This document shows, piece by piece, positions 8,714-61,794 of a DNA stretch of 64,000 nucleotides. This stretch comes from Polyangiaceae bacterium (lineage in GTDB: Bacteria; Myxococcota_A; Polyangia; Polyangiales; Polyangiaceae): assembly GCA_022842465.1 (NCBI GenBank), contig JALHPN010000009.1, forward strand, positions 1-64,000, read 5' to 3'. The notes below the pieces were generated by a model. The model searched no databases. It was not told where the DNA came from and was given only the letters and a program-made list of their open reading frames with translations. The number at the start of each line of letters is the position of its first letter. Position 1 is the stretch's first letter. The translations under genes and the position numbers were made by a program.

Positions 8714-8730
8714 GGGACGGGCGCGCTTTC

Positions 8731-8755
8731 GAGCGATTCGAGCGATTCGAGCGAC
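8731..8755. repeat. 9-bp direct repeat (gagcgattc) in a divergent promoter region
   Basis: gagcgattc occurs twice back to back (8731-8748) followed by a partial third copy gagcgac. It lies 18 bp upstream of the FHA gene start and 104 bp before the hydrolase start, so it could be a short regulator-binding array or simple replication slippage. Confidence 0.5.
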
Positions 8756-8858
8756 AAAACGGTCGCGAGGTGGTGTCGAACCCGAGCGTAGAGCGATCGA
8801 AGAATAGCGACCGGGCGGGGACGAACGCAACCGCAACCCTGCTACATCTCGAGTTCCG

Positions 8859-9530: not shown

Positions 9531-9569
9531 TCGACGCAAGGGGGCGGGTATGACGCGCCGCGTCGTCGG

Positions 9570-10325: not shown

Positions 10326-10426
10326 CGTCGGATCATACCGGGAGCCGCTCTCCTCACGCGACCGAGAATCTCGCGCGGGCCGCTGGCCTCGCGTCTCGGC
10401 TCGCGTGTAGTCTCGGGGGACGACTC

Positions 10427-38178: not shown

Positions 38179-39654
38179 TCACGCCTTGGTAGGCGCGGCC
38201 TCGATCGCGCAGAGGACGCCGCGAGCCTTGTTCCGGGTCTCCTCCGCCTCGAGCGCGGGGTCGCTCGCCTCGACGATGCCGGCGCCCGCCGTCACCTCGA
38301 AGCGGTCGCCCTTCTCCACGAGCGTACGGATCGCGATCGCGAAGTCGAGGTCGCCCGTGCGCGACGCGTAGCCGATCGCGCCGCCGTAGATCCCGCGCGG
38401 CCTCGCCTCGAGCTCGCGGATGATCTGCATCGCGCGGATCTTCGGAGCTCCGGACAACGTCCCGGCGGGGAAAGCCGAGTGGACGACCTCGAGCGGAGGC
38501 GTCGTCTCCGCGACCTTGCCGCGCACCTCGCTCACGATGTGCATGACGTGCGAGTAGCGCTCGACGGCCATGCGCTTCACGAGCTCGACGGAGCCGATCT
38601 CCGCGACCCGGCCGACGTCGTTGCGGCCGAGGTCGATCAGCATGACGTGCTCGGCGCGCTCCTTCGGATCGGCCAGGAGCTCGGCCTCGAGCGCCGCGTC
38701 CTCGGCCGGCGTCGTGCCACGCGGACGCGTCCCGGCGAGCGGCCGCACCGTCATCACGCCGGCCTCGAGCCGCACCATCGTCTCCGGGCTCGCGCCCGCG
38801 ACCCGAAGGCGGGCGCCGGGCTCCTCGGAGGGACCAGGCGGGAGATCGAGGAAGTACATGTACGGCGACGGGTTGAGGAGCCGCATCGCGCGGTAGACGT
38901 CGAAGGCGTCGCGCCCGTTCCGCGGCGTCGAGAACGTGCGGGCGAGCACGATCTGGAACGCATCACCGGCTGCGATGTACTCCTGCGCGCGCCGCACGCG
39001 GTCTCCGAACGCCGCGTCGTCGAGGTCCGTCTCGACGCCCGACGGGAGGCGCGAGCGATCCGGGAGCGCGATCGCGGACAACCCCGGATCTCTCGCGAGG
39101 TCTGCGTAGGCGCGCTCGACGTCGGCCGCGTCGCGCGCCGCGATCGTCACGGTCTGGGCGAGCGCGTCGAACACGACGACGGTGCACTCGCCGAGGAAGC
39201 GCGCGAGGGGGACGTAGTGCTCGGACCACGTCGCATCACTCCCCGGTGGCACCTTGTCGATGAGGTGCACGATGTCCCAGGCGAGATACCCCACGTGGGC
39301 GGTCGCGAACCGCGCCGCGGTCGCGGCGTGCGGGTCGTCGTGCTCGGGCGCCGCGTGCCGTCCGATGACGGACTCGATCGCCGCGAGCGGATCCTTCCCG
39401 AGGGAAGGCGCGAGCGCGGGAATGTCGTTCGCGCTCTTCGCGCCGGAGCCACCCCGGATCGACCAGCCGTCGCGATCGAGGAGCGCCTCGTACCGCGGCC
39501 GATAGCCCAGGATCGAGTAGCGTCCCCATCGCTCCCCGCCCACCACGCTCTCGAGGAGGAACGAGGCGCCCTCCGCATCGGCCTGCCGGAGCGCGGCGTA
39601 CGCTCGGACCGGGGTGAGCGCGTCCGAGGCGAACGTGCGCGTCGCGACCTTCAC
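38179..39654 (-). CDS. trpE: Anthranilate synthase component I
   Basis: 491 residues. The N-terminal domain has [21 protein letters not shown], the usual site of Trp feedback. The chorismate-binding domain follows: [91 protein letters not shown] and [11 protein letters not shown]. It converts chorismate to anthranilate with a TrpG partner, which is not in the window. It starts at a GTG overlapping the stop of the Kal-Kce gene by 4 bp. It could alternatively supply anthranilate to another pathway. Confidence 0.93.
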
Positions 39655-40991
39655 GGGCGCGCGGCTCCGTCCTTCTGGAGGAGGAGCGCTCGGGCCCGCA
39701 TGGGCTCGACCGGGGTGCGTCCGATGCTCTTCGCGTAGGCTGCCGCGCGGAGGACGAGCGGCGCGCTGCCCTCCGAGAGCACCCCCTTCGAGAGGTAGAT
39801 GTTGTCCTCGAGCCCCACGCGCGCGTGCCCGCCGAGGCGCATCGCGAGCTCCGTCATCGGCTGCTGGAAGCGACCGACGGCGGCGACCGCCCAGGAGGCG
39901 CCGGCCGGGACGCGCGTCATCATGTAGCGGACGTTCGCCTCGTTCGCCCCGATGCCGCCCGGCACGCCCATCACGAACTGGAAGTGGAGGGGCGCGTGGA
40001 GCAGGCCTTTCTCGGCGAGGGCGAGCGCCTCCTCCACGTGACCGACCTCGTAGCACTCGAGCTCCGCGATGGCGCCCGACTCCCGGATGCGGGCGGCGAG
40101 GTCCTTGATCTGCGGACGCGTGTTGACGAACACGTCGTCGCCGAAGTTGAGCGTGCCGCAGTTGAGCGTCGCCATCTCCGGCTTGCAGGCGAGGGGCTGG
40201 GCGCGCTCGTCAATCGACATGCCGATCGCGCCGCCGGTCGACACTTGCACGATGCAGTCGGTCTTCGCGCGGATCCTGTCGATCGTCTCCGCGAAGCGCT
40301 CCTTCGACTGGGTCGGCGACCCGTCGTCGTTGCGCACGTGGAGGTGGATGACGGCGGCGCCGGCCTCGCGGCAGCGCGCGGCCTCGTCGGCGATCTCGTT
40401 CGGGGTGATGGGGAGGTGCGGGGTGCTCGCGCGCGTGACCTCGGCGCCGACGATCGCCGCCGTGAGGACGATCTCGGGCGCGTGGGTCTCCGCGCGGGCG
40501 AGCGTGCGCGGACCGCCGTCCGAAGAGGCCGGCGTCACGATCGGACCCGGCGAAGGTGGCCCTGCGGCCGGAAGCGCCGGCATGTAGAGCTCGCGGGGAC
40601 GCCGTTGGAGGTCCTTCGGCGTCACGCACGTGCCCGTCGCGCGACAGACGACCTCGGGATCGGAGAGCACCTCGGCCGCGCTCGCTGGCCGGCCCGGGCC
40701 CCGGAGGTTCGCGATCACCTTCCGCGCCTCGAACCGCATCTGTCGGCTCGTGTTGCCGATCTTCACGAGCTCGGCCGATGCCTCGATGTAGTCGCCCGCG
40801 AAGACGGGCGCGAGGAACTCCACCGTCTCGTAGGCGCGGAAGAGGCCCTCGTCGCCGTCGAGGCGGATGAGGAGCTCGGTCGCGAGATCCCCGAAGAGGG
40901 CCAGCATGCGAGCGCCGTCGACGAGCTCGCCCGCGTAGTGGGCGTCGTGTGCGCTCATCCGGAGCCGGAGGACGACCTTCATCCCGATCAT
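39651..40991 (-). CDS. Fused 3-aminobutyryl-CoA ammonia-lyase (Kal) and 3-keto-5-aminohexanoate cleavage enzyme (Kce)
   Basis: 446 residues. Residues about 1-130 are a hotdog domain with the Kal signature ([62 protein letters not shown]). After a Pro/Ser linker, residues about 165-446 are a DUF849/BKACE TIM-barrel (VILTAAI-type start, [49 protein letters not shown]). Both act in lysine fermentation: Kce splits 3-keto-5-aminohexanoate with acetyl-CoA to acetoacetate and 3-aminobutyryl-CoA, and Kal removes ammonia. The other kam/kdd genes are not in the window. ATG at 40991 with a second at 40982. Confidence 0.85.
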
Positions 40992-41211
40992 GGCCCGATC
41001 GATACCACGGACCCCTCCGCCCGGGCGATCGGCTCCGGGCGGCCCGCGAGCGGCTCGGCCCGCCTGGCGAGCGGGCGAAGGGGAGAACGGTCTCCGACGT
41101 TGTCTCGAGGAAACCCCGACGGCTCTCCCCGCACCCGTCGTTGCCGCTTCGCGTCGATCATGATAGGTGCGTCGACCGAGCGAGCGCGAAAGGCGAGCCA
41201 GAAAAGCACCC

Positions 41212-42012
41212 ATGGTCTTCGTCGAAGCCCGTAATCTCCCTTCTCACGTCGGCATCATCATGGACGGCAACGGTCGCTGGGCGCAGCTCCGCGGCCAGGA
41301 GCGGGTGGAAGGCCACCGTGAGGGCTCGAAGGCCGTCCGCCGCATCGTCCGCGCGGCGCGTCGCCTCGGCCTCCGCGCCCTGACGCTCTATGCCTTCAGC
41401 GAGCAGAACTGGGCGCGCCCCGAGGACGAGGTGGACACCCTCATGGTCCTCCTCCGCGATTTCCTCCTCTCGGAGCGCGACGAGATCCTCGACCACGGCA
41501 TCCGGCTGAACGCCGTCGGCAACCTGGGGCGCCTCCCGGGGCTCGTGCGCGGCGTGCTCGACCCGCTCCGGAACGACAGCGCGTCGCACCACGAGATGAC
41601 GCTCACCCTCGCGCTCAGCTACGGCGGCCGCGAGGAGATCGCGGCGGTCGCCCGCGAGCTCGCGACCGAGTGCGCGAACGGCCGCATGCGCCCCGAGGAC
41701 GTGACCGCCGAGAGCCTGCGTGGCCGCATGCCGAGCCTCGCCGTCGGCGATCCGGATCTCGTCATCCGCACGGGCGGCGAGCGCCGCATCTCGAACTTCC
41801 TCCTCTACGGGCTCGCGTACGCCGAGCTCCACTTCACGGACGCCCTCTGGCCCGATTTCGCCGAGGCGGATCTCTACGAGGCCATCGAGAGCTACCAGCG
41901 ACGCGAGCGCCGTTTCGGTCTCGTCGGCAAGGGCGCGGTGCCCGTCTCTCCGGAGGCTCCGACGCCGCCGGCGCCGCCGAGCGAGGCGACGCGGCTCCGT
42001 CTCGTGGGGTGA
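41212..42012 (+). CDS. uppS: Isoprenyl (undecaprenyl) diphosphate synthase
   Basis: 266 residues. [13 protein letters not shown] near the start gives the catalytic Asp and diphosphate loop. [19 protein letters not shown] and [24 protein letters not shown] with LWPDF are the remaining cis-prenyltransferase motifs. It makes the C55 lipid carrier for peptidoglycan and polysaccharides. The ATG at 41212 is preferred over the GTG-proximal extension from 41167. A Pro-rich tail of about 20 residues extends the C-terminus. TGATG links it to cdsA. Confidence 0.95.
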
Positions 42013-42901: not shown

Positions 42902-42956
42902 CTCTGCGTGACGTGCTTCGTTTCGCCTCGATCCCGGCGCCGTCACGCAGAGTTTT
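42902..42956 (+). terminator. Inverted repeat with T-tract after cdsA
   Basis: CTCTGCGTGACG (42902-42913) pairs perfectly with CGTCACGCAGAG (42941-42952), followed by TTTT. The 27-nt loop is longer than usual. It would end the uppS-cdsA transcript, or could attenuate the glutamate dehydrogenase gene 77 bp further on. Confidence 0.62.
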
Positions 42957-43032
42957 CGCGCATGATCTCGACGCGTCGCGGCACGCGGTTTTCGAGCTTG
43001 CAGCTCCCGTGGATGCGCTAAGACGAGCGGCG

Positions 43033-44379
43033 ATGAAACCGTCCGATCCCCCGTCAGAAACGCTGAAGATTGGAACGCCGTCCACCGTCCCGGCGGCGCC
43101 CGGTTCCGCGAGGACGCTCGTGAAGGAGTACGACTTCTTCAAGGTGGTCCAGGACTACCTCGATCGCGCCGCGCGCACGATCAACCTCGCGGACTACGTC
43201 CGCACGATCCTGAGCCAGCCCAAGAACGAGCTCATCATCAACTTCCCGGTGAAGATGGATGACGGGCAGGTCCGGCTCTTCAAGGGCTACCGCGTCCAGC
43301 ACAACAACCTCCTCGGCCCGTTCAAAGGCGGCATGCGCTTCCACCCGAGCGTCACGCTCGACGACGTGAAGGCGCTCGCCGCGATGATGACGTGGAAGTG
43401 CGCGCTCATGCGCGTCCCGTTCGGCGGCGGCAAGGGCGGGATCAAGTTCGACCCGCACGCCGTCTCGAAGGCGGAGCTCCAGCGGATCACGCGTCGCTTC
43501 ACCCACGCGCTCGGGGAGAACATCGGACCCGAGTACGACATCCCCGCGCCCGACGTCGGCACCAACAGCCAGACGATGGCGTGGTTCATGGACACGTACT
43601 CGAACACCGTCAGCGCGGCGTACAAGCAGAGCGTGAAGGGCGTCGTCACGGGCAAGCCCGTCGCGTCCGGCGGCACGCTCGGCCGCGCGAAGGCCACGGG
43701 CCAGGGCATGGTCTACTGCGTGATCGAGTGGTCGAAGGAGAAGGGCTTCGAGCTCGAAGGCTCCACCATGACCGTGCAGGGCTTCGGCAACGTCGGCTCG
43801 CACCTCGCCGTCATCCTCTCGCGTCTCGGCGTGTCGACGGTCGCCGTCGGCGATCACTCGGGGTACATGTACAACCCCGAGGGCTTCAACGCGCACAAGC
43901 TCCAGGACTGGGTCGAGGAGCACGGATCCATCGCTGGCTACCCGGGAGGCAAGGCCATCACGCGCGAGGAGTTCTTCAAGACGAAGTCCGACATCTTCGC
44001 GCCCTGCGCCCTCGAGAACCAGATCGGCGAGACCGAGGCGCGCGCGCTCGAGTGCAAGCTCATCGTCGAGGGCGCGAACGGCCCGACGAACCCCGCCGGC
44101 GAGAAGATCCTCCTCGAGCGTGGCATCGACATCCTCCCGGACGTCCTCGCCAACTCGGGCGGCGTCACCGTCAGCTACTACGAGTGGGTCCAGAACAAGC
44201 GCTCGGAGTCGTGGACGGAAGAAGAGGTCGACGCGAAGCTGGAGCGCGCGATGAGCCGCGCCTACCGAGAGGTCGCCGACTTCGCGCGGCAGAACAAGGT
44301 CGATCGTCGGATCGCGGCGTACGCGCTGGCGCTCCAGCGGATCGAGGCGGTCTACAAGGAGCGCGAGATCTTCCCGTGA
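43033..44379 (+). CDS. gdhA: Glutamate dehydrogenase (Glu/Leu/Phe/Val family)
   Basis: 448 residues. The catalytic domain has GPFKGGMRFHPSV, MTWKCALMRVPFGGGKGGI (active-site Lys) and GPEYDIPAPDVGTN. The Rossmann domain has MTVQGFGNVGSHLA. KLIVEGANGPTNPAGEKIL, DVLANSGGVTVSYYEWVQN and the C-terminal helices are typical. It interconverts glutamate and 2-oxoglutarate with ammonia; length and pattern fit the hexameric NAD(P) type. An N-terminal extension of about 30 residues precedes the family start. TAAGAC at 43019-43024 lies 8 nt before the ATG. Confidence 0.93.
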   Translation: MKPSDPPSETLKIGTPSTVPAAPGSARTLVKEYDFFKVVQDYLDRAARTINLADYVRTILSQPKNELIINFPVKMDDGQVRLFKGYRVQHNNLLGPFKGGMRFHPSVTLDDVKALAAMMTWKCALMRVPFGGGKGGIKFDPHAVSKAELQRITRRFTHALGENIGPEYDIPAPDVGTNSQTMAWFMDTYSNTVSAAYKQSVKGVVTGKPVASGGTLGRAKATGQGMVYCVIEWSKEKGFELEGSTMTVQGFGNVGSHLAVILSRLGVSTVAVGDHSGYMYNPEGFNAHKLQDWVEEHGSIAGYPGGKAITREEFFKTKSDIFAPCALENQIGETEARALECKLIVEGANGPTNPAGEKILLERGIDILPDVLANSGGVTVSYYEWVQNKRSESWTEEEVDAKLERAMSRAYREVADFARQNKVDRRIAAYALALQRIEAVYKEREIFP

Positions 44380-44441: not shown

Positions 44442-44678
44442 GTCGTCTCTGCACGGCGGTCGGCCCACGCGAGGCCACGCGCCGGTGAGGCCTGCCTCTC
44501 CTCATCGGTGTGGACGCGAGGTCCACCGCGCGGAGGCGGGGTGCACAACGGGCCACGCCGGCCGCTCCGAAGTACCTGGAAGCTGTGCAGACCACCTTCG
44601 AGCTCGGCCGAGCACGCGAGTTGCTCTGCCCTCCGTACCCCACGCCATCGAGCGAGTGAGGGAACGGAGGGAGCCCGA

Positions 44679-46130
44679 ATGCTGAATCGCTGGTCGCTTG
44701 TCGGTACGTTGGGGATGGTGGTCGGCAGCGCCGGCCTCGCCGCTTGTGCAGGGGATCGAATCGAGGCCGACGACGGGACGGCCACCGTCGCCTCGGAGCT
44801 CTCGAAGGATGATCGGCGTGAGGCGAAGGAGGCGTGCCGCACGAGCCGCCGTCTCCAGCGCATGGCCCGCGGGCGCAGCCTCGGCGACGACTACGACGGT
44901 GAAGACGACGCCGACGCCCATGCCACCGACGCGATCCGTCGGGGACGTCACCACTTCAACGACCGCCGTCTGCGAGGCCTCGGAGCCAACGGTCGCGCGT
45001 GCGCCGACTGCCATCAGGCGCACGACGCGTACAGCCTCTCGCCGTCCACCGCGAAGGCGCGCTTCGACGCTCTCCAGAAGTGCCGGTCGATCGAGCCGGA
45101 CGCGGACGACCCGCTCTTCCGCGCGATCGACGCGGACGATTTCCGCGTCAACGGCGCGAACGCGAGCGACTTCTCGAACCTCGTGGAGAACGGCCTCGTC
45201 CGCGTGACCCTCCCGCTTCCCGGCAACGTGAAGCTGCTCGACCCCGTCACGCTGCTGCCGACCGGGGAGACCGAAGCGGACGTCTGGCGCGCCGTTCCCA
45301 CGGTCCACAACGTGGCGATCACGGGCTCGAACGGCATCGCGCCCTTCGGCCCCCGCGGGCCGAACACGAGCGGCGGTTACCAGATCGACGCGCGCTTCGG
45401 CACGCTCCAGGAGCAGGCCCTCGGCGCGCTCACCGCTCACGCGCAGATCACGTCGCAGCCGGCGCCGCGGATGCTCGACGACCTCGCGGCGTTCCAGAAC
45501 GATCTCTTCAGCTCGGCTGGCGTCCGCGCCATCGCCGGCGCGCTCCAGGCGGGCACGACGCCGCCGGACATCGACCCGCCGCTCACGGCGCTGGAGACCG
45601 AGGGCAAGGCCGTCTTCGAGCGCGCGTGCGGCAACTGCCACGGCGGCGCGAGCCAGTCGAACACCATCCAGCAGAACCTCCCGCCGTTCGCGGTGCTCGC
45701 GCGCTTCCACAACCCGCGCGCTGGCTGCCCTCGCAACAAGGACACGGCCGCGACGCCGCGCTGGGCGTTCGACCCCTGTCCCAGCCGCCTCGAGCGCAAC
45801 GCGCGCACGTACGAGGTCACGAACGCAGACGGGTCGAAGTCGCGCATCCGCACGAACGACCCCGGCCGCATGCTCCTCACCGGCAACTTCGCGGACGCGG
45901 AGACGTTCGACGTTCCGCAGCTCCGGAACCTCGCGGCGACCGCGCCGTACTTCCACAACAACAGCGTCGACACCATCGAGGGCGTCGTCATCCTCTACGA
46001 GGAGTTCTACAAGCGCGTGCTCGCCGTGGCTCCGACGTCGGGCACGCTCACGACGGACGGCATCAACAGGGATCGCCCCAACACGGCGGCGGATCGCGAC
46101 GCCCTCGTCGCGTACCTCCGCAAGCTCTGA
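44679..46130 (+). CDS. Di-haem cytochrome-c-peroxidase-like lipoprotein
   Basis: 483 residues. The N-terminus has a lipobox-like LAAC (C23) within a short signal peptide. Two CxxCH haem sites are at C108-H112 (CADCH) and C317-H321 (CGNCH). LRNLAATAPYFHNNSVDTIEGVVILY near the end resembles the C-terminal haem domain of the bacterial cytochrome c peroxidase/MauG superfamily, which uses peroxide or oxidises substrates in the periplasm. An N-terminal acidic spacer of about 50 residues is unusual. ATG with GGAGG at 44666-44670. It is divided from the next gene by a strong hairpin. Confidence 0.85.
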   Translation: MLNRWSLVGTLGMVVGSAGLAACAGDRIEADDGTATVASELSKDDRREAKEACRTSRRLQRMARGRSLGDDYDGEDDADAHATDAIRRGRHHFNDRRLRGLGANGRACADCHQAHDAYSLSPSTAKARFDALQKCRSIEPDADDPLFRAIDADDFRVNGANASDFSNLVENGLVRVTLPLPGNVKLLDPVTLLPTGETEADVWRAVPTVHNVAITGSNGIAPFGPRGPNTSGGYQIDARFGTLQEQALGALTAHAQITSQPAPRMLDDLAAFQNDLFSSAGVRAIAGALQAGTTPPDIDPPLTALETEGKAVFERACGNCHGGASQSNTIQQNLPPFAVLARFHNPRAGCPRNKDTAATPRWAFDPCPSRLERNARTYEVTNADGSKSRIRTNDPGRMLLTGNFADAETFDVPQLRNLAATAPYFHNNSVDTIEGVVILYEEFYKRVLAVAPTSGTLTTDGINRDRPNTAADRDALVAYLRKL

Positions 46131-46415: not shown

Positions 46416-47648
46416 ATGCGGAAGCGAGTCATCGTCATTGGTGGATCCGTAGGCGGACTGCTCGCCGCGCATCATTTCCTCCAGCTCGGTGACTGGGAGG
46501 TGGAGGTCTACGAGCGCGCCAAGGGCGACCTCGCGGGCCGCGGCGCGGGCATCGGAACGCACGACGCGCTGTACGACGTGATGGGGCGGCTCGAGATGCC
46601 GCTCGACGCTTCCGTGGGCGTCTCGACCCGCTCGTACCTCTGCGTCGACCGAGAGCCGACCTTCCGTCACGAGATCGAGCTCGGCCGTGAGCGGGTGATG
46701 GCGTCTTGGACGCGCATCTACAGGCTCCTGCGCGATCGCTTTCCGACGTCGAAGTATCACGCAGGCGTCCCGTTGACGCGTCTCGAGAGCGCCGAGGACG
46801 GCGTCGTCGCGACCTTCGCGGACGGGACGTCACGCGAGGCGGACCTGCTCGTCGGTGCGGACGGCCTCCGGTCCACGGTCCGGGAGCGGCTCCTCCCTGG
46901 CGTGGACCCCGTCTATGCGGGATGCGTCGCCTGGCGGGCGACCGTCCCCGAGCGCGACGTGCCCGTGCACCTCCGCGGGAGCTACGCGTTCTGCGTCGCG
47001 GAGAACGAGCTCGCGCTCGCGTATCCGATCGCGTCCGCCGAGGGCCAGACGGGCCCGGGCGAGCGCCTCAGCAACCTCGTCTGGTACCGCGTCGTCGACC
47101 CGGCGAAGCTCGCCGAGCTCCTGACGGACCGTCATGGCACGCGCCACGACCTCAGCATCCCGCCACCGCTCGTCCGGCCGGCGGTCATCGAGGAGGCGTC
47201 CGCCGCCGCGCGCGAGCTGCTCGCGCCCGAGCTCGCCGAGATCTTCACGCGCTCGGCCCAGCCGTTCCTCCAGGCGATCTACGACCTGACGGTCCCGCGC
47301 ATGACGGTCGGACGCGCCGTGCTCCTCGGTGACGCGGCGTTCGTCGCTCGTCCGCACGTCGGCGCCGGCGTGACGAAGGCCGCGCTGGATGCCGTCTGCC
47401 TCGCGGAGAGCGTGCGCACGCACGCGCCCGACATGCCGCGCGCGCTCGCCGCATACGACGAGGAGCGCTCCCTGTTCGGCAAGCAGATCGTCGCGCGCGC
47501 GCGCCGGATGGGACAGATGTCGCTCGACGGTCGGACACGAACGAACGAAGAGCGCGCCGTCCACTGTGAACGCGTCGTTCGCGACTACATCAGCTCGTAC
47601 AAGGACCTGATGAGTCTCTCGGCGACCAACCGCACGTCGCCCGCTTGA
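46416..47648 (+). CDS. FAD-dependent aromatic-type monooxygenase
   Basis: 410 residues. Rossmann FAD motif GGSVGG (9-14), then VYERAKGDLAGRGAGIG, the DG motif GADGLRSTVRE and the GD motif LLGDAAFVARPHVGAGVTKAALDA. This matches class A flavin monooxygenases, closest in pattern to 2,6-dihydroxypyridine 3-monooxygenase-like members. It hydroxylates an electron-rich ring or similar substrate with NAD(P)H. The ATG has a good GGAGGTGA at 46403-46410. It lies 22 bp before the megasynthase gene and is almost certainly co-transcribed, so it is a likely tailoring or precursor enzyme of the cluster. Confidence 0.88.
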   Translation: MRKRVIVIGGSVGGLLAAHHFLQLGDWEVEVYERAKGDLAGRGAGIGTHDALYDVMGRLEMPLDASVGVSTRSYLCVDREPTFRHEIELGRERVMASWTRIYRLLRDRFPTSKYHAGVPLTRLESAEDGVVATFADGTSREADLLVGADGLRSTVRERLLPGVDPVYAGCVAWRATVPERDVPVHLRGSYAFCVAENELALAYPIASAEGQTGPGERLSNLVWYRVVDPAKLAELLTDRHGTRHDLSIPPPLVRPAVIEEASAAARELLAPELAEIFTRSAQPFLQAIYDLTVPRMTVGRAVLLGDAAFVARPHVGAGVTKAALDAVCLAESVRTHAPDMPRALAAYDEERSLFGKQIVARARRMGQMSLDGRTRTNEERAVHCERVVRDYISSYKDLMSLSATNRTSPA

Positions 47649-47658
47649 ACCGGTGAAC

Positions 47659-47663
47659 CGAGG
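47659..47663 (+). promoter_or_regulatory. Ribosome-binding site deciding the megasynthase start
   Basis: GAGGA lies 7 nt before the ATG at 47671. The in-frame GTG at 47653 has no such element, so the ATG is preferred. Confidence 0.55.
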
Positions 47664-47670
47664 ACCGAAG

Positions 47671-54165
<6,495 letters not shown>

Positions 54166-54221
54166 CTCTGGAGCACGGGGACCGCGACACGAGAAGAGCG
54201 GCATGATACGAATGCTCGAAG

Positions 54222-54518
54222 ATGGCGAGGCTCAGGTCTTCCGATCGAAACGTTCGCCACCAGCGTCGACGGCGACTCGTGGTGGGCGGCGGACTGTCAG
54301 CCGGCATCCTCCTCGCGGCCTGTCAGCTCATCGTGGATCCGGACCCTTCTCTCGTGCCCGATCCCGATAGCGCAGCTCCGCAGCAGAACCTCATCCCGGA
54401 CGGCACGACCTTCGACCCCAGCCGTCTCTCCGAATCCGATGCGCAGACCGACGCGGCCGACGCCGCACCGAGCGACGCCGCTGCCGACGGAGACGTGACC
54501 GCCGCCAACGACACCTGA
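54222..54518 (+). CDS. Small acidic lipoprotein
   Basis: 98 residues. An Arg-rich N-region (RHQRRRR), a hydrophobic segment and lipobox LLAAC give a lipoprotein signal. The mature part is Asp/Ala/Pro-rich, low complexity and probably disordered (SDAQTDAADAAPSDAAADGD). No family is recognised. It lies 56 bp after the megasynthase and is followed by a hairpin at 54561-54582. Confidence 0.65.
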   Translation: MARLRSSDRNVRHQRRRRLVVGGGLSAGILLAACQLIVDPDPSLVPDPDSAAPQQNLIPDGTTFDPSRLSESDAQTDAADAAPSDAAADGDVTAANDT

Positions 54519-54560
54519 GAATCGAGAGCCGAGGAGCCGCCCAGCGAGCTCCGGAGCGAC

Positions 54561-54582
54561 GCGCAGACCCGACGGGCTGCGC
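54561..54582 (+). terminator. Hairpin after the small lipoprotein gene
   Basis: GCGCAG...CTGCGC with additional inner CC/GG pairing, 42 bp after the stop. Moderate stem, no T-run. Confidence 0.4.
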
Positions 54583-54604
54583 CTACAGAGGATTACCGAG
54601 TCGC

Positions 54605-54621
54605 TCGCGCATCATGCGCGA
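54605..54621. promoter_or_regulatory. 17-bp perfect palindrome upstream of the Cys-rich lipoprotein gene
   Basis: TCGCGCAT-C-ATGCGCGA, 8-bp arms about one central base, 60 bp before the ATG at 54681. A TATTAT element at 54642-54647 is a candidate -10 box in unusually AT-rich DNA for this window. The palindrome is placed as an operator would be. Confidence 0.45.
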
Positions 54622-54680
54622 CGCTCACGAGACGAGCCGATTATTATCGCGGTCGAGGTGACCATGATACTGGTGAGGGC

Positions 54681-56120
54681 ATGATGAAGGGGCTTACGCT
54701 AAAGCGTTCTCTGCTCGCGGTCAGCGCGGTGTGCGTCGCAGGGATCGGGGGTTTGGTGAACTGCGCCAGCGACGAGGACACGTCGGTGGTGATCGTCACG
54801 AATTGCAACCTCGCGTCGCTTCGCGCGACCGACGTGAGCGAAGCAACCGTGAAGACCTATCACGACACTGCTTCCGAGTTCCTCCGGGAAACCGAGCAGC
54901 TCATCGAGGCGATCAAGACGGAGTGCAACACCATGAACGCCGCGCTCGGTCTGCCGACCGGCGCGACCATGAAGGCCGCGTGCAACACCATCGCGGCCCG
55001 GGTGAAGGCGGCGAACGACCTCATCCCCGTCCCTGACGGTGGGTTCCCGGTCGGGACCGTTCCGGCACCGTGGGTCAGCGTGCGGTTCGCGGACGACTGC
55101 ATCCCGGACCCGAACGCCGAGCGCACGTGCATCGACGGCTGCTCGGGCAAGCCGGCCTGCGATCAGGCCGCGGCATGTCCCCCGGATCAGCGCGTAGGTA
55201 CGTGCAGCGGTGAGTGCACGGGCCTCTGCTTCGAGCAAGGGGTCGCGGCCGGCAGCTGCGTCGGCGCGTGCGAAGGCCGGACGGAGATGGGCTTCACGGA
55301 TGCGGGGGCGCCCCCGCAGTGCGCCGGCGTCTGCGAAGGCACCTGCGCCGCCAACGCGTGGACGGGCAACTGCGCCGCGGGCTGCACTGCCGGCTTCGTC
55401 GGCCTCTGTGCCGGGACCTGTACGGGCGTCTGCGAGGGCGCTCCGATCAACGTCCAGGACAACGACGCCGGCGCCGACGCCGGTCCGATGCCCCCGCCGA
55501 CGAACGCGGACGGCAACTGCAAGGGCGTCTGCCGCGGCCAGTGCAGCTCGAACGCGAGCGGCTCGTGCACGGCACGATGCCAGGGAGCCTTCGCGGGCGG
55601 TGCTTGTGGCAACTGCGTCGGCACGTGCATCTCCACGTCGCAGGCGTCGGTCCAGGACCTGACGCGCTGCACCGGCTCCTGTACCTCGTCGAAGGCGACC
55701 TGCCCTGGAACGTGCACGGGAGCGTGCTCGAACTCGGCGCCGGGCTTCGCCTGCAAGGTCGGCCTGAACTGCGATGCGAACGATCAGTGCAAGCGGGCCT
55801 GCCGCCTGAAGGGGCTCTTCGCGTCCAAGTGCGACGCGCCTCCCTCGGTCGAGGTCCGGGCCGCGGGCGACGCGCTCCTGCTCGACGTCTTCACGAAGCA
55901 CGGTCCTGCCTTCGCGAAGCTCGTGAAGGAAGTCTCCCAGCTCCGCTTCGCGGTGCTCGATCTCGCGGACCGCACCACGGGTGACTTCGAGAAGATCGGC
56001 GTCGTTCGTCTCGCAGCGTTCAAGTGCGTGGACGAGGGCAAGGACGTCTACCGTCGAGCGCAGGCGAACTACAACGAGCTCGTAAGCGTATCGAAGACCA
56101 TCCAGGGTACGGCGTACTGA
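54681..56120 (+). CDS. Cysteine-rich lipoprotein with C-x3-C-x3-C repeats
   Basis: 479 residues. A signal peptide ends in a lipobox-like LVNC (C28). Residues 30-135 are helical with few Cys. Residues 140-384 hold 36 Cys, mostly in triplets spaced C-x3-C-x3-C with Gly and Thr between (CSGECTGLC, CAGVCEGTC, CAGTCTGVC, CKGVCRGQC, CPGTCTGAC). The last 95 residues are again helical (FAKLVKEVSQLRFAVLDLAD). No known domain fits. It must be exported and could form a disulfide rod or bind metal; a multicopper oxidase is encoded 4 kb downstream. No CxxCH haem motif is present. Confidence 0.8.
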   Translation: MMKGLTLKRSLLAVSAVCVAGIGGLVNCASDEDTSVVIVTNCNLASLRATDVSEATVKTYHDTASEFLRETEQLIEAIKTECNTMNAALGLPTGATMKAACNTIAARVKAANDLIPVPDGGFPVGTVPAPWVSVRFADDCIPDPNAERTCIDGCSGKPACDQAAACPPDQRVGTCSGECTGLCFEQGVAAGSCVGACEGRTEMGFTDAGAPPQCAGVCEGTCAANAWTGNCAAGCTAGFVGLCAGTCTGVCEGAPINVQDNDAGADAGPMPPPTNADGNCKGVCRGQCSSNASGSCTARCQGAFAGGACGNCVGTCISTSQASVQDLTRCTGSCTSSKATCPGTCTGACSNSAPGFACKVGLNCDANDQCKRACRLKGLFASKCDAPPSVEVRAAGDALLLDVFTKHGPAFAKLVKEVSQLRFAVLDLADRTTGDFEKIGVVRLAAFKCVDEGKDVYRRAQANYNELVSVSKTIQGTAY

Positions 56121-56140
56121 GCCACCTTTCCTATCTCCTG

Positions 56141-56146
56141 AAGGAG
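56141..56146 (+). promoter_or_regulatory. Ribosome-binding site deciding the GTG start at 56153
   Basis: AAGGAG lies 6 nt before the GTG at 56153 and fixes the start just ahead of the signal peptide. Confidence 0.7.
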
Positions 56147-56152
56147 CGGCAA

Positions 56153-57853
56153 GTGTTGAAGAATTTCTTGCGTTACGGTTCGGCGCTCGTCCTGAGCAGT
56201 CTCGCGGTCGCGTGTGTGGCGTTGACAGATGGGACCTCTTCCCAGTGTCGCTCCCAAGAGGACTGCCTCGCACGCGGGCCGGAGTTCGCGAATACGACCT
56301 GCACAACGGCTCGCGTATGCGAGAAGATCCAGGTCGAGTCCCAGAGCTGTTCGACCAATCGAGAATGTCTCGAACGGAACAACGGGGTCCCGTCTCTCTG
56401 CCGGAAGAGTGACGGCAAGTGCACGCAGCTCCTCTCGGCGGAGTGCGGGACCTTCCTTGGAGATCAGTCCGTTCTCACGGACGACAATACGATCTTCTTC
56501 GGGATGACGACGCTCACGAACCTCAACGGCGTCTTCAACATCAACGGCGTCGCGCTCGCCGTCGACGAGATCACGAGGACGACGGGCGGCCTGCCGCCGG
56601 TGCAGCCAGGCGGCCCCCGTCGCCCGATCGTCACCGTCGTCTGCACGTCCGACGCGGCGCAGAACGGCGCCACGCTCAACGACGCGATCCGTCAGACGCA
56701 GCACCTCGCGAGCATCCCGGTCACCGGGCTGTTCGGTCCGCTGTCGTCGGCGAGCATCCTCGAGCAGCTCACGCAGGTCGTGATCCCTGCCGGGATCCCG
56801 ACGATGACGACGGGCGTGCAGGTCGGCGTCTCGAACCTCGCCGACAACGATCTCGTCTTCCGCACGGTCATGAACGAGGACTCGAGCGTCGGGCTCCTCG
56901 CGTCGTGGATCACGAACCACGCGCAGCCGGCAGCGCTCGCGGCGGGCGTGCTCCTCGACGGTGAGCCGATGCGCGTCGCGATGGCCCTGTCGAACGACAA
57001 CTTCGGCATCGGCTACAACGGCCTCTTCACGCGCTCTGGCGTGACCTTCAACGGCAAGGACCTCCAGACGAACCTCGCCGAGGGCACGTTCAAGCTCGTC
57101 GACGTCGGTGACATCCAGGACGTCATCCGTCAGCCCGACGCGTACCAGAAGACGGCGTCGGCCATCCGGCAGCTCCAGGAGTACAAGCCGCACGTCATCA
57201 TCTGGGCGGTGCCGCCCCAGAGCGCGGGCGCCCTCTTCGGGCCCGCGAACCGCACCTGGCCGGTCGGCACCGAAGTGCCTGTCCAGTTCTGGGGCAGCTC
57301 GGGCGGCAACGCCCTCGCGCAGGCCGCGATGTTCGCGCTCCCGGCGGCGGTGGCGGAGAAGCTACGCACGCGCTTCTTCGTCCCCTTCAACCTCCCGGTG
57401 GGCTTCGTCCAGGAGGACGCGAACACGTTCGACGCGACGCTCAAGCTCTTCAGGCCCGAGCTCGCGACGTCGGTCATCGGCGACAAGGCTTGGGCCGCGT
57501 ACGATGCGATGTACCTGTTCGCGTACGCGATCGCATCCCTCGGGCCGGAGCCGCTCACGGGCGCGAACATCTCGAAGGCCGTTCGGAAGCTCGGCGTCGG
57601 AGAGGTCGTCAAGTGGGGGCCCACCGATCTCGCGCGCGGCATGGCGCTCGTGACCTCGGGCCAGACGATCGACTACCACGGCGTCTTCGGCACCTATCAC
57701 TTCGACGCGAACGGCGACCACCCGGGGTCGGCAGAGCTGTCCTGCTTCAACGCGACCACGGCCACGCCGCCGCGCACGCTGAAGCGTCTCGGCTACGCCT
57801 ACAACGACGCGTCGAAGTCGACGACCGGCGCCCCGCCGACGGCGTGCCCGTGA
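56153..57853 (+). CDS. Cys-rich lipoprotein with periplasmic-binding-protein (type 1) fold
   Basis: 566 residues from a GTG with AAGGAG ahead of it. Lipobox SLAVAC (C21). Residues 30-100 carry nine Cys in a compact disulfide module (CRSQEDC, CTTARVC, CSTNREC, SLCRKSDGKC). From about 115 the sequence follows a branched-chain amino-acid-type ligand-binding protein: an amino-terminal lobe with IVTVVCTSDAAQNG, ASIPVTGLFGPLSSASILEQL, VAMALSNDNFGIGYNGLF and PVQFWGSSGGNALAQAAMFALP, and KAWAAYDAMYLFAYAIASLG in the second lobe. No permease or ATPase gene is near, so uptake is unproven; it may be a ligand sensor or scavenger. Confidence 0.8.
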   Translation: MLKNFLRYGSALVLSSLAVACVALTDGTSSQCRSQEDCLARGPEFANTTCTTARVCEKIQVESQSCSTNRECLERNNGVPSLCRKSDGKCTQLLSAECGTFLGDQSVLTDDNTIFFGMTTLTNLNGVFNINGVALAVDEITRTTGGLPPVQPGGPRRPIVTVVCTSDAAQNGATLNDAIRQTQHLASIPVTGLFGPLSSASILEQLTQVVIPAGIPTMTTGVQVGVSNLADNDLVFRTVMNEDSSVGLLASWITNHAQPAALAAGVLLDGEPMRVAMALSNDNFGIGYNGLFTRSGVTFNGKDLQTNLAEGTFKLVDVGDIQDVIRQPDAYQKTASAIRQLQEYKPHVIIWAVPPQSAGALFGPANRTWPVGTEVPVQFWGSSGGNALAQAAMFALPAAVAEKLRTRFFVPFNLPVGFVQEDANTFDATLKLFRPELATSVIGDKAWAAYDAMYLFAYAIASLGPEPLTGANISKAVRKLGVGEVVKWGPTDLARGMALVTSGQTIDYHGVFGTYHFDANGDHPGSAELSCFNATTATPPRTLKRLGYAYNDASKSTTGAPPTACP

Positions 57854-57866
57854 CCGACTCCGCCGC

Positions 57867-59099
57867 GTGAGCTCGGGGACGGCCGACGCGGCCAGTGGGC
57901 GGCGTCACGCGATCGTGAGCGTGACGCTGCTCATCGTCTGTCAGAGCTTCCAGTCCCTCGCGGTCGGCGGCATCGCGCTCTTCCTGCCGCTCATCCGCTC
58001 GGATCTCTCGATCACGTTCGCGCAGGGCGGCATGCTGTCGGGCGCTGCCACGCTGACCTACGGCGCAGGTCAGATCCCCGCGGGGCTGCTCTGCCAGAAG
58101 TACGGCGCGAAGAACCTCTTCGCGATTGGCCTCGCGGGCGCTCTCGCGCTCTCGTTCAACCTCGCCCGCATCACGACGTTCGAGGGCGCGCTCCTCAACC
58201 AGCTCCTCTCAGGGGCCTTTCGCGCTCTCCTCTTTTCCCCCGGCGTCGTGCTCATCACGTCCTGGTTTCCGCCCAACCGGCGGGCGACGGCGATGGGCCT
58301 CTTCGTCATCGGCGGGATGTCGGGGAATCTGTTCCTGTCGCTCGGCGGGCCGGCCCTCATCGGGCCGTTCGGCTGGCGTAAGCTCTTCATGGGCTTCGCC
58401 GTCGCCGGGTTCGTGATGGCGGCGCTGTTCCAGGTCTTCGGCAGCGAGCGTCGAGACGGGCTCGTCCGGCAGGATCTCTCCTTCCGGCAAGCGGTCATCC
58501 TGATGACCCACCGGATCATGTGGTTGTGCGGCGGCCTCCAGTTCCTCCGCTTCGGCGTCGTGACGGCCTTCAACTTCTGGCTCCCGTCGTTCCTCGTCGC
58601 CGATCGCGGACTGACCATCGCGCAGGCGGGCTGGATCACGGCGATGAGCGCGGCCTTGACGGCGGGGTCGAACGCGCTCGGCGGCTACGTCTCGGACCGC
58701 CTCCGGAACCCGCCTCTCGTCATCGGCGTCTCCATCGCCGCGCTCGGCTGTACGGCAGCCATCCTACCGGCGACGACCTCCATGGCCGGCCTCCTCGTGG
58801 TCGTCGCCGTGAATGCCGTGTTCCTGCAATTCTACTTCGGACCGCTCTTCCACGTCCCTGTCGAGGTGTTGGGAGTCCGGACGGTGGGCGTGTCGACGGG
58901 CGTGAGCAACGTGTTCGCGAACGTCGGGGCGCTCGTCTTCGCGCTCCTCCTCGGCATCGTGCGGGACAAGTCGGGCTCGTTCACGCTCGGGTTCGCGAGC
59001 ATCACGGTCACGTGTGTGTTGGGTGTCCTCTTGACGGTCGCGATGGCGCGCACACGTGCGCGAGCGCTCGCCGGCCTGCGCGTCGAAGACGAGACGTAG
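57867..59099 (+). CDS. MFS transporter
   Basis: 410 residues with twelve predicted membrane helices. The N-terminal half shows the major-facilitator pattern (YGAGQIPAGLLCQKYGAKNLFAIGL between helices 2 and 3; SWFPPNRRATAMGLFVIGGMSGN). The second half mirrors it (GGYVSDRLRNPPLVIG). GTG start, 13 bp after the previous stop. In the cluster it is the likely exporter of the metabolite, though substrate class cannot be read from sequence. Confidence 0.9.
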   Translation: MSSGTADAASGRRHAIVSVTLLIVCQSFQSLAVGGIALFLPLIRSDLSITFAQGGMLSGAATLTYGAGQIPAGLLCQKYGAKNLFAIGLAGALALSFNLARITTFEGALLNQLLSGAFRALLFSPGVVLITSWFPPNRRATAMGLFVIGGMSGNLFLSLGGPALIGPFGWRKLFMGFAVAGFVMAALFQVFGSERRDGLVRQDLSFRQAVILMTHRIMWLCGGLQFLRFGVVTAFNFWLPSFLVADRGLTIAQAGWITAMSAALTAGSNALGGYVSDRLRNPPLVIGVSIAALGCTAAILPATTSMAGLLVVVAVNAVFLQFYFGPLFHVPVEVLGVRTVGVSTGVSNVFANVGALVFALLLGIVRDKSGSFTLGFASITVTCVLGVLLTVAMARTRARALAGLRVEDET

Positions 59100-59130
59100 A
59101 GACCACCGAGAAGGGGCTGTTGCTCTGTTG

Positions 59131-59161
59131 GTGGCAATCCCCTAGCGTCAGAGGTTGCCAC
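59131..59161. promoter_or_regulatory. Inverted repeat between the MFS and hydroxylase genes
   Basis: GTGGCAA (59131-59137) and TTGCCAC (59155-59161) form a 7-bp perfect dyad, extendable with mismatches into the flanking C-rich/G-rich bases. It lies 40 bp before the next ATG and may be an operator or weak terminator. Confidence 0.4.
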
Positions 59162-59200
59162 TTCTCTGCGTTCTCCTCCGTCGCCGCAAAGAGGAAGTCC

Positions 59201-60145
59201 ATGAAGACCTCGCGTCTGACAGCCGACGAATCCCTGCCGCTCCTCGTGACGCCCGCTGCGCCGGACGAGGACATCATGAGCCTCGACGTGAGCGAGCTCC
59301 GACGCTTGCTGCGTGAGAACGGTGCGCTGCTCTTCCGCGGATACGGCATCGATTCGCCGGCGCGGTTCTCCGCGTTCTGCGCGCGCATCTCGGACAAGCT
59401 GCTCGACTACACCGAGCGCTCGACGCCGCGCAGCGTGGTCGAGGGCCAAGTCTACACGTCGACGGACTACCCGGCCGACCAGCACATCCCTATGCACTGC
59501 GAGATGGCGTACTCGCGAAAGTGGCCTCGCATCGTCTGGTTCTACTCGCATGTCGCGGCGACCGAGGGAGGCGAGACTCCCCTCTGCGACGCTCGCAAGG
59601 TGTACGCGCGCGTCCCGCAGTCGATTCGCGAGCGCTTCGAGAAGGACGGCGTCATGTACGTACGCAACTTCCGCAAGGGCATCGGACTCCCCTGGCAAGA
59701 GGTCTACGGGGTGAAGACGCAGGCGGAGCTCGAGCGCTACTGCACGGCGCACGAGATCGACTTCGAGTGGAAGCCCGACGGCGTCCTCCAGACACGCGCG
59801 CGCGCGCAGGCGACCATCCGCCACCCCGAGACGGGGGAGGCGGTCTGGTTCAATCAGGCCCATCTCTTCCATTTCACGAGCCTGCCCGGTCCGACGCGTC
59901 AGGCGCTGCTCTCGGCCTTCGGCGAGCAGGGCATGCCGCGCAACGCTCTCTACGGCGACGGCACGCCGATCGAGGCTTCCACCATCGACGAGATCCATCG
60001 CGTGTACCGCGAGGTGGAGGTCGCGTTTCCCTGGGAGCGCGGCGACGTCGCCATGGTGGAGAACATGCTCGTCTCCCACGGCCGCCGGCCGTTCAAGGGC
60101 GAGCGCAAGACGCTGGTGGCGATGGCGGAGTCCTATCCGAGCTGA
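59201..60145 (+). CDS. SyrP-like Fe(II)/2-oxoglutarate hydroxylase (TauD family)
   Basis: 314 residues. ENGALLFRGYGI opens the jelly-roll fold. The metal site is H99-x-E101 (PMHCEMAYSRKWP) and H293 (LVSHGRRPF), with R302 for 2-oxoglutarate. The His-x-Glu form with MAYS and the following GGETPLCDARKVY are typical of SyrP-type enzymes, which hydroxylate carrier-bound amino acids in NRPS pathways. Halogenases of this fold have Ala/Gly instead of Glu, so hydroxylation is expected. ATG with GAGGAAG at 59191-59197. It is the probable tailoring enzyme for the megasynthase product. Confidence 0.88.
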   Translation: MKTSRLTADESLPLLVTPAAPDEDIMSLDVSELRRLLRENGALLFRGYGIDSPARFSAFCARISDKLLDYTERSTPRSVVEGQVYTSTDYPADQHIPMHCEMAYSRKWPRIVWFYSHVAATEGGETPLCDARKVYARVPQSIRERFEKDGVMYVRNFRKGIGLPWQEVYGVKTQAELERYCTAHEIDFEWKPDGVLQTRARAQATIRHPETGEAVWFNQAHLFHFTSLPGPTRQALLSAFGEQGMPRNALYGDGTPIEASTIDEIHRVYREVEVAFPWERGDVAMVENMLVSHGRRPFKGERKTLVAMAESYPS

Positions 60146-60223: not shown

Positions 60224-60231
60224 TCGTGGAC

Positions 60232-61794
60232 ATGTTCGAGAATCGTTCGACGCTGACTCGATTCTTCGCGACGGCAGGTGTGGCTGCGCTCATCGCGACC
60301 GCGTGCATCGTTCCGGAGGACGCAAGCCCCCGCGAAGAGTTCGAGATCCCGATCCCCGAGGTGCTCGAGCCGAAGCGCGACGCGGACGGCGACCATTACG
60401 ACCTGCGCCAGCAGGAGGGGCTGCAGACGCTGCTCCCGAACCGGCCGCCGTCGCGCATCCTCGGGTACAACGCCAAGTGGCCCGGTCCGACGATCGTCGC
60501 GCGCGCGAACCGTCCGACGTACGTCACGATACACAACGACCTCAACCGTCGCCTCACGACCCACAACCACGGTCTCACGGTCGAGGCGCGTTGGGACGGC
60601 CACCCGGCGGACTTCGTCATGCCGAAGACGGCGAAGACGTACCGCTATCCGAACGCCCAGCACGCGTCCACGTACTGGTACCACGACCACACGTGGCTCT
60701 CGACCGCCCGAAACGTCTGGTGGGGGCTCGCGGGGCTCTACATCATCAAGGACGATCTCTGGGACTCCCTGAACCTGCCTTCGGGCAAGTACGACGTCCC
60801 GCTGCTACTGCAGGATCGGATGTTCGAGGGGCCGGAGGGCGTCGGATACCTCGAGTCCCCGCGCAAGAGCGCGGAGGACGAGCTCGACCTCTTCTACCCC
60901 GCCGTCGGCGGCGGCGCGTACGGCGACGTCACCTGCGTGAACGGCGTGTGCAGCCACCCTGCGCCGTCGACGTACGGTCCGTTCGGCCCTCGGATGAACG
61001 TCGAGGCACGGAAGTACCTCTTCCGCCTCGTCAACGGATCGGACCACCGCATCTACCGCCTCGCCCTCCGGGAGTACAACCCGGAGCTGGTGCGCGACGT
61101 CTTCTTCACGAATTTCACGATCGTCGCGGGTGACGGGAGCTTGCTCGAGGCGCCCGTTCCCAAGAACACGCTCATGATCGGTCCGGCGGAGCGCTACGCG
61201 ATGATCGTCGACTTCTCGCGGTTCAAGGTCGGCTCGACCGTGATCATGGAGAATCTCGACCCGCCGATCGTCGGCCGGCCCATGCCCTTCGTCATGTCGT
61301 TCCACGTCACCGAGCCCGCGAAGGAGCCGGACACCTCGGTCATCCCGACGAAGATGCTGACGATCCCGCGGTTCGACCCGGCGAAGGCCGACGTGAAGCG
61401 GACGATCGTCCTCGGCAAGAGCGACGGCGACGCCGTCACGTTCCGCCAGGGCTTCGGCGGCAACAACTGGACGATCAACGAGCGGATGTACGACCCTGGC
61501 CGTATCGACTTCCAGGGCAAGCTCGGACAGACGGAGGTCTGGGACATCCTGAATCCGACGAACAACGACCACAACATCCACCTCCACCTCGTCCAGTTCC
61601 AGATCATCTCGACGAACGGAGCGATGCCTCCGCCGGAGGCCACTGGGTGGAAGGACACCGTCACGGTGCGCGCCCGCGAGAACGCGCAGATCATGCTGAA
61701 GTGGGAAGGCTACCCAGGCGTCTTCGTCTTCCACTGCCACGTCATCGGGCACGAGGACAACGCGATGATGGCCCAATACGAGATCCTGCCATGA
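60232..61794 (+). CDS. Multicopper oxidase lipoprotein (CotA/laccase-like)
   Basis: 520 residues. The signal ends in LIATAC (C25). All four copper-ligand clusters are present: H111-N-H113, H151-D-H153 (WYHDH), the HNIHLHLVQF motif, and H501-C502-H503 with H507 and M512 as type 1 copper ligands. Three cupredoxin domains are indicated. Pattern and spacing resemble CotA, bilirubin oxidase and PhsA-type enzymes, which oxidise phenols or similar donors while reducing O2 to water. It is exported and overlaps the next gene by 4 bp. In this locus it could oxidatively couple or cyclise the product, or protect against copper; this is inference. Confidence 0.92.
   Translation: MFENRSTLTRFFATAGVAALIATACIVPEDASPREEFEIPIPEVLEPKRDADGDHYDLRQQEGLQTLLPNRPPSRILGYNAKWPGPTIVARANRPTYVTIHNDLNRRLTTHNHGLTVEARWDGHPADFVMPKTAKTYRYPNAQHASTYWYHDHTWLSTARNVWWGLAGLYIIKDDLWDSLNLPSGKYDVPLLLQDRMFEGPEGVGYLESPRKSAEDELDLFYPAVGGGAYGDVTCVNGVCSHPAPSTYGPFGPRMNVEARKYLFRLVNGSDHRIYRLALREYNPELVRDVFFTNFTIVAGDGSLLEAPVPKNTLMIGPAERYAMIVDFSRFKVGSTVIMENLDPPIVGRPMPFVMSFHVTEPAKEPDTSVIPTKMLTIPRFDPAKADVKRTIVLGKSDGDAVTFRQGFGGNNWTINERMYDPGRIDFQGKLGQTEVWDILNPTNNDHNIHLHLVQFQIISTNGAMPPPEATGWKDTVTVRARENAQIMLKWEGYPGVFVFHCHVIGHEDNAMMAQYEILP

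What the first reader, a model, noticed from the sequence alone, without database searches (positions are those of the whole stretch)
46416..60145. Candidate undescribed biosynthetic gene cluster around a compact A-PCP-KS-AT-ACP-TE enzyme
A flavin monooxygenase, a single-protein NRPS-PKS, an MFS exporter and a SyrP-like hydroxylase lie together and share direction with short gaps. The megasynthase has one loading A domain, one malonyl extension and a TE, with no C or KR domain, so the predicted core is a beta-keto acid or its cyclised form, built from one adenylated acid plus C2. I do not recognise a known cluster with this domain order and these partners.
Basis: partly seen in the sequence, partly recalled or inferred. 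Interest (0 to 1): 0.78.

Follow-up and report, generated by a model that had tools for sequence, protein, structure and literature searches.

The report
Small hybrid enzyme with odd loader
A bacterium with a large genome carries a compact assembly-line enzyme that seems to join one unusual acid to a two-carbon unit; its overall layout has precedents, but the domain that chooses the acid belongs to a rare, uncharacterised type.

Summary
The megasynthase at 47653-54165 is real. It reads A-PCP-KS-AT-(dead DH)-ACP-TE, with intact A, PCP, KS, AT (malonyl-type HAFH), ACP and TE motifs. An aromatic-type flavin monooxygenase gene ends 4 nt upstream and very probably belongs with it. MFS, TauD and a laccase-type copper oxidase follow on the same strand, but after 515 bp and two lipoprotein-like genes; their link is plausible, not shown. 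No equivalent was seen in 95 related genomes (at most four candidates scored in each). The layout is not new in kind: myxobacterial CorA ends in A-T-KS-AT-ACP-TE, and fungal FnsA is A-T-KS-AT-DH-KR-ACP-TE. The unusual part is the loading A domain. Its code (THYLVMVSSK) lacks the amino-binding Asp and was found in only two other proteins, both A-PCP-TE enzymes from the Gemmatimonadota searches. This clade scores nearest to V-D-code domains, which I recall as beta-alanine type. I predict a small acid that is not an alpha-amino acid, extended once by malonate. New variant of a known kind; product unknown.

The parts
46416..47648 (+). FAD-dependent aromatic-type monooxygenase (PRK07236 subfamily; best solved relative 2,6-dihydroxypyridine hydroxylase 2vou)
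   Evidence: stop codon 4 nt before the synthase frame
47653..54165 (+). hybrid NRPS-PKS megasynthase, 2170 aa (GTG 47653, or ATG 47671)
47686..49167 (+). A (adenylation) domain, code THYLVMVSSK
49270..49470 (+). PCP carrier domain (LGLNS)
49543..50985 (+). KS domain with C-terminal extension (Cys and both His motifs present)
   Evidence: CurL best PDB match
51130..51984 (+). AT domain, GHSIG and HAFHS (malonyl type)
52213..52992 (+). degenerate dehydratase-like region, catalytic motifs lost
53128..53337 (+). ACP carrier domain (IGLDS)
53434..54120 (+). TE (thioesterase) domain, GYSMG
57867..59099 (+). MFS transporter, organic-anion (DgoT) type; direction unknown; membership of the cluster inferred
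59201..60145 (+). TauD-family Fe(II)/2-oxoglutarate oxygenase; membership inferred
60226..61794 (+). multicopper oxidase (bilirubin oxidase/CotA laccase type) with lipoprotein-like start, possible cluster member

Best explanation
A single-module hybrid NRPS-PKS. The A domain activates a small acid without an alpha-amino group (inferred from its code) and loads it on the PCP. KS and the malonyl-type AT add one C2 unit. With no KR and a dead DH the chain stays a beta-keto thioester, and the TE releases it as a beta-keto acid (which would readily lose CO2 to a methyl ketone) or as a ring. The FMO encoded 4 nt upstream then hydroxylates an electron-rich ring or enol. TauD, MFS and the copper oxidase may tailor, move or oxidatively couple the product, but this is less certain. 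Shown here: domain order, intact and lost motifs, gene order, and the scarcity of the A-domain type in the searches made. Inferred: substrate class, single use of the module, fate of the product, cluster borders.
For: Domains and motifs. A code without Asp at position 235: T235 H236 Y239 L278 V299 M301 V322 S330 S331 K517. Two A-PCP-TE proteins from the Gemmatimonadota searches share it (THYIIMISTK, THYIVMISTK; 45% identity over the A domain for the first; 100/100 support for the clade of three in a tree of 24). Next by score to the window's A domain are V235-D236 domains: 306, 302, 288 and 284 bits. CorA has the same six terminal domains, and a beta-keto acid intermediate is proposed there (PMC10979478, passages). 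The FMO's best solved relative is 2,6-dihydroxypyridine hydroxylase, E 1.2e-42. In genome G029 the TauD homologue (52%) ends 9 bp before a large NRPS frame.
Against: The starter acid is unknown. A fifth V-D domain scored only 256 bits, below several ordinary D235 domains, so kinship to the V-D type rests on four of five. The enzyme could act iteratively, as FnsA does. The three FMO relatives on plasmids whose surroundings I read (42-45% identity) lie in operons that look catabolic, not biosynthetic. Two lipoprotein-like genes interrupt the proposed cluster and the MFS gene starts 13 bp after one of them. Lack of close relatives in the genus does not single out cluster genes: the neighbouring receptor-like gene and the copper oxidase lack them too.
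Confidence: 0.5

Rival explanations
1. Iterative enzyme: the A-PCP loads an acid, the KS-AT-ACP adds two or more malonyl units and the product closes to an alpha-pyrone or aromatic ring, as fungal FnsA does (and, as I recall, HispS, AnATPKS and HppS).
For: Loading and terminal logic like FnsA, which uses three or four malonyl units (PMC9606254). No second module was seen in the genes scanned around the synthase. A ring product would suit the aromatic-type FMO and the laccase-type oxidase.
Against: KS-AT is closest to the modular CurL among solved structures and to modules in other large PKS frames of related genomes, which normally act once. The fungal enzymes were not compared by sequence.
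Confidence: 0.25
2. The A domain loads a beta-amino acid (beta-alanine type) and the TE closes a lactam such as piperidine-2,4-dione.
For: Outside its own clade the A domain scores best with V235-D236 domains, a code I recall as that of beta-alanine.
Against: Both acidic residues of the recalled code are replaced (D236 by H, D331 by S) in the window protein, and likewise (H; T at 331) in both relatives.
Confidence: 0.12
3. FMO plus synthase is the whole pathway; MFS, TauD and the copper oxidase are an unrelated neighbouring unit.
For: 515-bp gap and two other genes between them; the MFS gene starts 13 bp after the receptor-like gene; the protein of 56024-57853 has a 71% identical inverted copy 13.4 kb downstream, so the stretch has been rearranged.
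Against: All three lie on the same strand with gaps of 101 and 80 bp; TauD homologues in two other genomes sit beside NRPS frames. FMO, synthase, MFS and TauD all lack close relatives in the 11 other same-genus genomes searched, but so do the two genes tested beside them, so this is weak.
Confidence: 0.4
4. The synthase is a non-functional remnant of a longer assembly line.
For: Dead DH; no second module seen nearby; KS-AT related to modules of long frames.
Against: The other catalytic motifs are intact, the frame is uninterrupted, GC3 is normal for the window (0.90), and loading and release ends are complete.
Confidence: 0.06

Closest known systems
CorA, coralinone synthetase of Corallococcus exiguus (PMC10979478; abstract and passages seen)
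   Same: Ends in A-T-KS-AT-ACP-TE with no KR; a beta-keto acid that decarboxylates is the proposed intermediate; a single gene makes the core; myxobacterium.
   Different: CorA has an extra A-T-C in front and joins two amino acids into pyrazinones; its partner gene corB encodes a peptidase. The window enzyme has no C domain, carries a dead DH and has an A domain without Asp235. Whether CorA has a vestigial DH was not checked.
Fungal NRPS-PKS FnsA (PMC9606254; passages of abstract and introduction, and section 6, seen)
   Same: A-T loading of one acid, then KS-AT-...-ACP-TE; no C domain.
   Different: FnsA has DH and KR domains and adds three or four malonyl units; fungal; its A domain takes p-coumaric or p-hydroxybenzoic acid. 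Sequences not compared here.
   Same: Same A-domain clade and nearly the same code.
   Different: No KS, AT or second carrier found; longer TE region; no FMO or TauD among the neighbours scanned, though L103 has a POT/MFS transporter gene two genes upstream.
V235-D236 A domains (beta-alanine type as recalled), e.g. Gloeocapsopsis dulcis plasmid protein WP_323713224.1
   Same: CCQK-type motif and xSxxE; four of five score best outside the clade.
   Different: V-D replaced by T-H; D331 (where present) by S or T.
2,6-dihydroxypyridine hydroxylase (2vou)
   Same: Best solved relative of the FMO, over residues 22-386 of 430.
   Different: Recalled as a catabolic enzyme; here next to a megasynthase gene.

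Membership tests
Hybrid NRPS-PKS megasynthase | A and PCP fused to KS, AT and ACP in one frame with active motifs | tested here: met
Hybrid NRPS-PKS megasynthase | makes a product from an adenylated acid plus malonyl units | not testable with these tools
   needs enzyme assay
CorA-type pyrazinone synthetase | A-T-C-A-T-KS-AT-ACP-TE, two amino acids joined | tested here: not met
   one A domain, no C domain
CorA-type pyrazinone synthetase | terminal KS-AT-ACP-TE without KR | tested here: met
   a dead DH lies inside it
Fungal A-T-KS-AT-DH-KR-ACP-TE (FnsA) enzymes | KR present | tested here: not met
   no KR hit
alpha-amino-acid A domain | Asp at position 235 | tested here: not met
   Thr208 there
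beta-amino-acid (V-D code) A domain | Asp at position 236 | tested here: not met
   His209 there
SyrP-like beta-hydroxylase | direct similarity to SyrP and action on a PCP-bound amino acid | not tested
   SyrP sequence not at hand; only TauD family and 1y0z/9yut shown
Active PKS dehydratase | catalytic His and Asp of the double hotdog | tested here: not met

The most novel reading that the evidence does not exclude
The THY A domains are an undescribed loader for a neutral isostere of beta-alanine such as malonamate (the ammonium-binding acids are exchanged for His and Ser). Malonamate plus one malonyl unit gives 3-oxoglutaramoyl-ACP, which the TE closes to 2,4,6-trihydroxypyridine. The FMO, a relative of 2,6-dihydroxypyridine hydroxylase, hydroxylates it, and the laccase-type oxidase turns it into an azaquinone pigment. 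This would be a new assembly-line route to hydroxypyridines.
Probability: 0.06. Interest if true: 0.8.

Novelty: new variant of a known kind. Interest (0 to 1): 0.45.

Why it matters
It adds a minimal one-module loader-extender-releaser enzyme, small enough to express whole, and points to a scarce A-domain subfamily seen in two phyla whose substrate I could not predict from its code. Finding that substrate would fill a hole in the A-domain specificity rules and could reveal a new starter unit for hybrid assembly lines.

Tried and rejected
Known-cluster match: no MIBiG or antiSMASH here. Paper searches by domain string and by topic found CorA and fungal relatives but no A-PCP-KS-AT-ACP-TE enzyme of this exact order; the library holds open-licence papers only. 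Search for A-domain motif strings in papers: nothing relevant among 5 listed. The beta-alanine code VDWVISLADK is recalled; searches did not confirm it in print, and PARAS (PMC13126170), AFC-BC11 (PMC12186527) and the foxicin paper (PMC5318452) were seen only in passages. AlphaFold2 of the DH-like region (mean pLDDT 49.6) and of the A domain (47.7) were too poor to use; no fold search was run. KS-type matches elsewhere in the genome (14 besides the window's) were not followed. The first genome-contig scan found nothing; the second, an exact motif scan, found one locus. The DH fragment against 10 related loci by phmmer gave no hit, so the alignment was used. A tRNA call inside TauD (59943-60041) was judged spurious. 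The BKACE/4HBT gene 39654-41213 was considered as a partner and rejected: opposite strand, 6.4 kb from the synthase, other genes between. Repeats within 53.9-64 kb showed nothing of note.

Limits and dropped rows: only A-domain matches spanning more than 350 query positions were kept; repeated sequences were dropped. The tree used chosen loci (L077, L078, L080-L082, L088-L101, L103, L104); the myxobacterial-type relatives are in the separate tree. At most four candidates per genome were scored and at most three, so a relative could have been missed; the listing was cut short. The genome is given as 6% contaminated.

Full report
What is there. The window is bases 1-64000 of an 83.5-kb contig of a 9.57-Mb, 431-contig genome. 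A GC3 gene scan supports these + strand genes: Glu/Leu dehydrogenase 42913-44379, cytochrome-c-type protein 44508-46130, FMO 46416-47648 (ATG at 46416 after GGAGG), synthase 47653-54165, Cys-rich lipoprotein-like protein 54681-56120, ligand-binding-receptor-like protein 56024-57853, MFS 57867-59099, multicopper oxidase 60226-61794. The TauD gene (ATG at 59201) was not on that filtered list; its open frame starts far upstream of the true gene. It is supported by Pfam at 167.5 bits. Ten further genes upstream were scanned by Pfam and gave no NRPS, PKS or carrier gene.

The megasynthase. Pfam: AMP-binding 18-370 with C-terminal part 427-497, PP-binding 540-606, KS 631-1001 with extension to 1111, AT 1160-1444, second carrier 1826-1895, TE 1928-2156. 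Catalytic motifs are present in each. The AT carries GHSIG and HAFH, which I know as malonyl-type signs (recalled). In alignment with seven modules from related genomes, the His of the DHR-type motif is present in five (L011, L012, L014, L023, L025), while L013 lacks the region and L022 is divergent; the window protein has ESR there and lacks about five residues after it. The second motif, HPxLxD, is present in three of seven (L011, L014, L025) and absent in the window protein. No KR matches. The expected chain is therefore a beta-ketoacyl thioester.

The loading domain. Against the second A domain of LgrA and by script the ten code positions are T208 H209 Y212 L252 V277 M279 V304 S312 S313 K497. 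Numbering by GrsA and its meaning are recalled. Asp235, which holds the alpha-amino group in ordinary A domains, is absent. Among 95 other genomes searched with the whole protein, the listed matches that run from A through AT come from six genomes (G003, G013, G042, G054, G057, G065; 36-39% identity; listing cut short, at most four candidates scored per genome). All six have D235. In 317 genomes of the class, the window's own included, only the window's A domain passed 1e-90. In 377 of the phylum, 5 passed 1e-75, the window's own included; the eight matches of the other four have two V-D and six D235 codes. An exact motif scan of genome contigs found one locus, L077, a Gemmatimonadota MAG: an A-PCP-TE protein, 45% identical over the A domain. 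A search of 395 genomes drawn from that phylum with the L077 A domain found 36 with a match at 1e-60, its own included; one, G513, was close (53%) and the next best was 40%. The G513 protein is also A-PCP-TE. The codes of the matches for which no locus was returned were not read. The three THY domains form a clade with 100/100 support (the two-member version), with codes THYLVMVSSK, THYIIMISTK, THYIVMISTK. The best-scoring outsiders to the window domain are V235-D236 domains (306, 302, 288, 284 bits), but one V-D domain scored 256, below several D235 domains. That the clade arose from V-D-type loaders is thus likely, not proven; the trees were rooted at midpoint only.

What the substrate may be. 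The V-D code is, from memory, that of beta-alanine. In the clade both acids of the recalled code are gone while small polar residues remain (H, Y, S, S/T). I infer a small acid with a neutral or acidic polar group instead of an ammonium group. No call shows the substrate.

The partners. The FMO's best solved relative is 2,6-dihydroxypyridine hydroxylase over residues 22-386 of 430. In 57 other related genomes its best match by score is 38% identical over residues 140-390. On plasmids 50 records match, and the 12 listed are 41.5-45.5% identical; the three regions read all hold amidohydrolase and ActP-type symporter genes, two of them also aldehyde dehydrogenase and ABC transporter genes, which looks catabolic. 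The MFS protein is nearest to organic-anion carriers, below NCBIfam cut-offs; its best match in relatives by score is 29% identical, and none listed exceeds 33%. TauD has matches in 11 of 58 genomes including its own, best 52% in G029 and 51% in G030, none in the 11 other same-genus genomes. In G029 the homologue's frame ends 9 bp before an NRPS frame of at least 3500 aa; in G030 the match (L069:10554-11465, -) runs into an NRPS frame called at 2170-10998 (-), whose start is only roughly placed. The copper oxidase has a lipoprotein-like start and is of the bilirubin oxidase/CotA kind; its best match in 37 other genomes by score is 34% identical. An acetyl-CoA carboxylase carboxyltransferase-like gene lies at about 64.9-67.5 kb of the contig on the other strand and is probably housekeeping.

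Is it one cluster? FMO and synthase are 4 nt apart. Then come 515 bp and two genes that do not look biosynthetic. The second of these ends 13 bp before the MFS gene and has a 71% identical inverted copy at 71270-72931 of the contig. No terminator-like or promoter-like site was found at 54100-54720, which says little. The MFS-TauD-oxidase group follows with gaps of 101 and 80 bp. FMO, synthase, MFS and TauD have no close relatives in the genus, but neither do the receptor-like gene and the copper oxidase, so this does not mark the borders. I give about even odds that the two groups make one pathway.

Known kinds. CorA of Corallococcus (PMC10979478) is A-T-C-A-T-KS-AT-ACP-TE; the abstract says corA was shown genetically and biochemically to make coralinone, and the passages propose a dipeptidyl beta-keto acid that decarboxylates. 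Its last six domains are the window's order without the dead DH. Fungal FnsA is A-T-KS-AT-DH-KR-ACP-TE and adds three or four malonyl units (passages and section 6). What I could not match to anything described is the A-domain type; this rests only.

Verdict. A genuine small hybrid assembly line with an uncommon loader; product unknown; new variant of a known kind.

Noticed in passing
window 56024-57853 and C9:71270-72931 (L009:11270-12967, -): Receptor-like lipoprotein gene with an inverted copy 13.4 kb away (71% identical protein; 75.7% identical DNA over 1663 bp). Searched with the first copy, the best match by score in 37 other genomes is 31% identical.
   Followed up: partly
window 39654-41213 (-): 4HBT thioesterase fused to a beta-keto acid cleavage enzyme (BKACE), 6.4 kb upstream of a synthase predicted to make a beta-keto acid; probably unrelated (carnitine-type metabolism recalled).
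   Followed up: no
L077:2171-5005 (-) and L103:8409-11360 (+): Two A-PCP-TE proteins from the Gemmatimonadota searches, 50% identical to each other over 942 positions, with the same unusual A-domain code; one has a PPTase and a fatty-acid desaturase gene next to it, the other has no obvious biosynthetic neighbour among the nine genes scanned (itself included).
   Followed up: partly
L009:4860-7472 (-), contig about 64.9-67.5 kb: Single gene matching both ACCA and Carboxyl_trans, an acetyl-CoA carboxylase carboxyltransferase-like fusion.
   Followed up: no
window 54681-56120: Cys-rich protein with repeated CxGxC-type motifs and a lipoprotein-like start; no Pfam, NCBIfam or PHROG match at E 0.001.
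   Followed up: partly
window 59943-60041: ARAGORN tRNA-Gly call inside the TauD coding frame, probably spurious.
   Followed up: no
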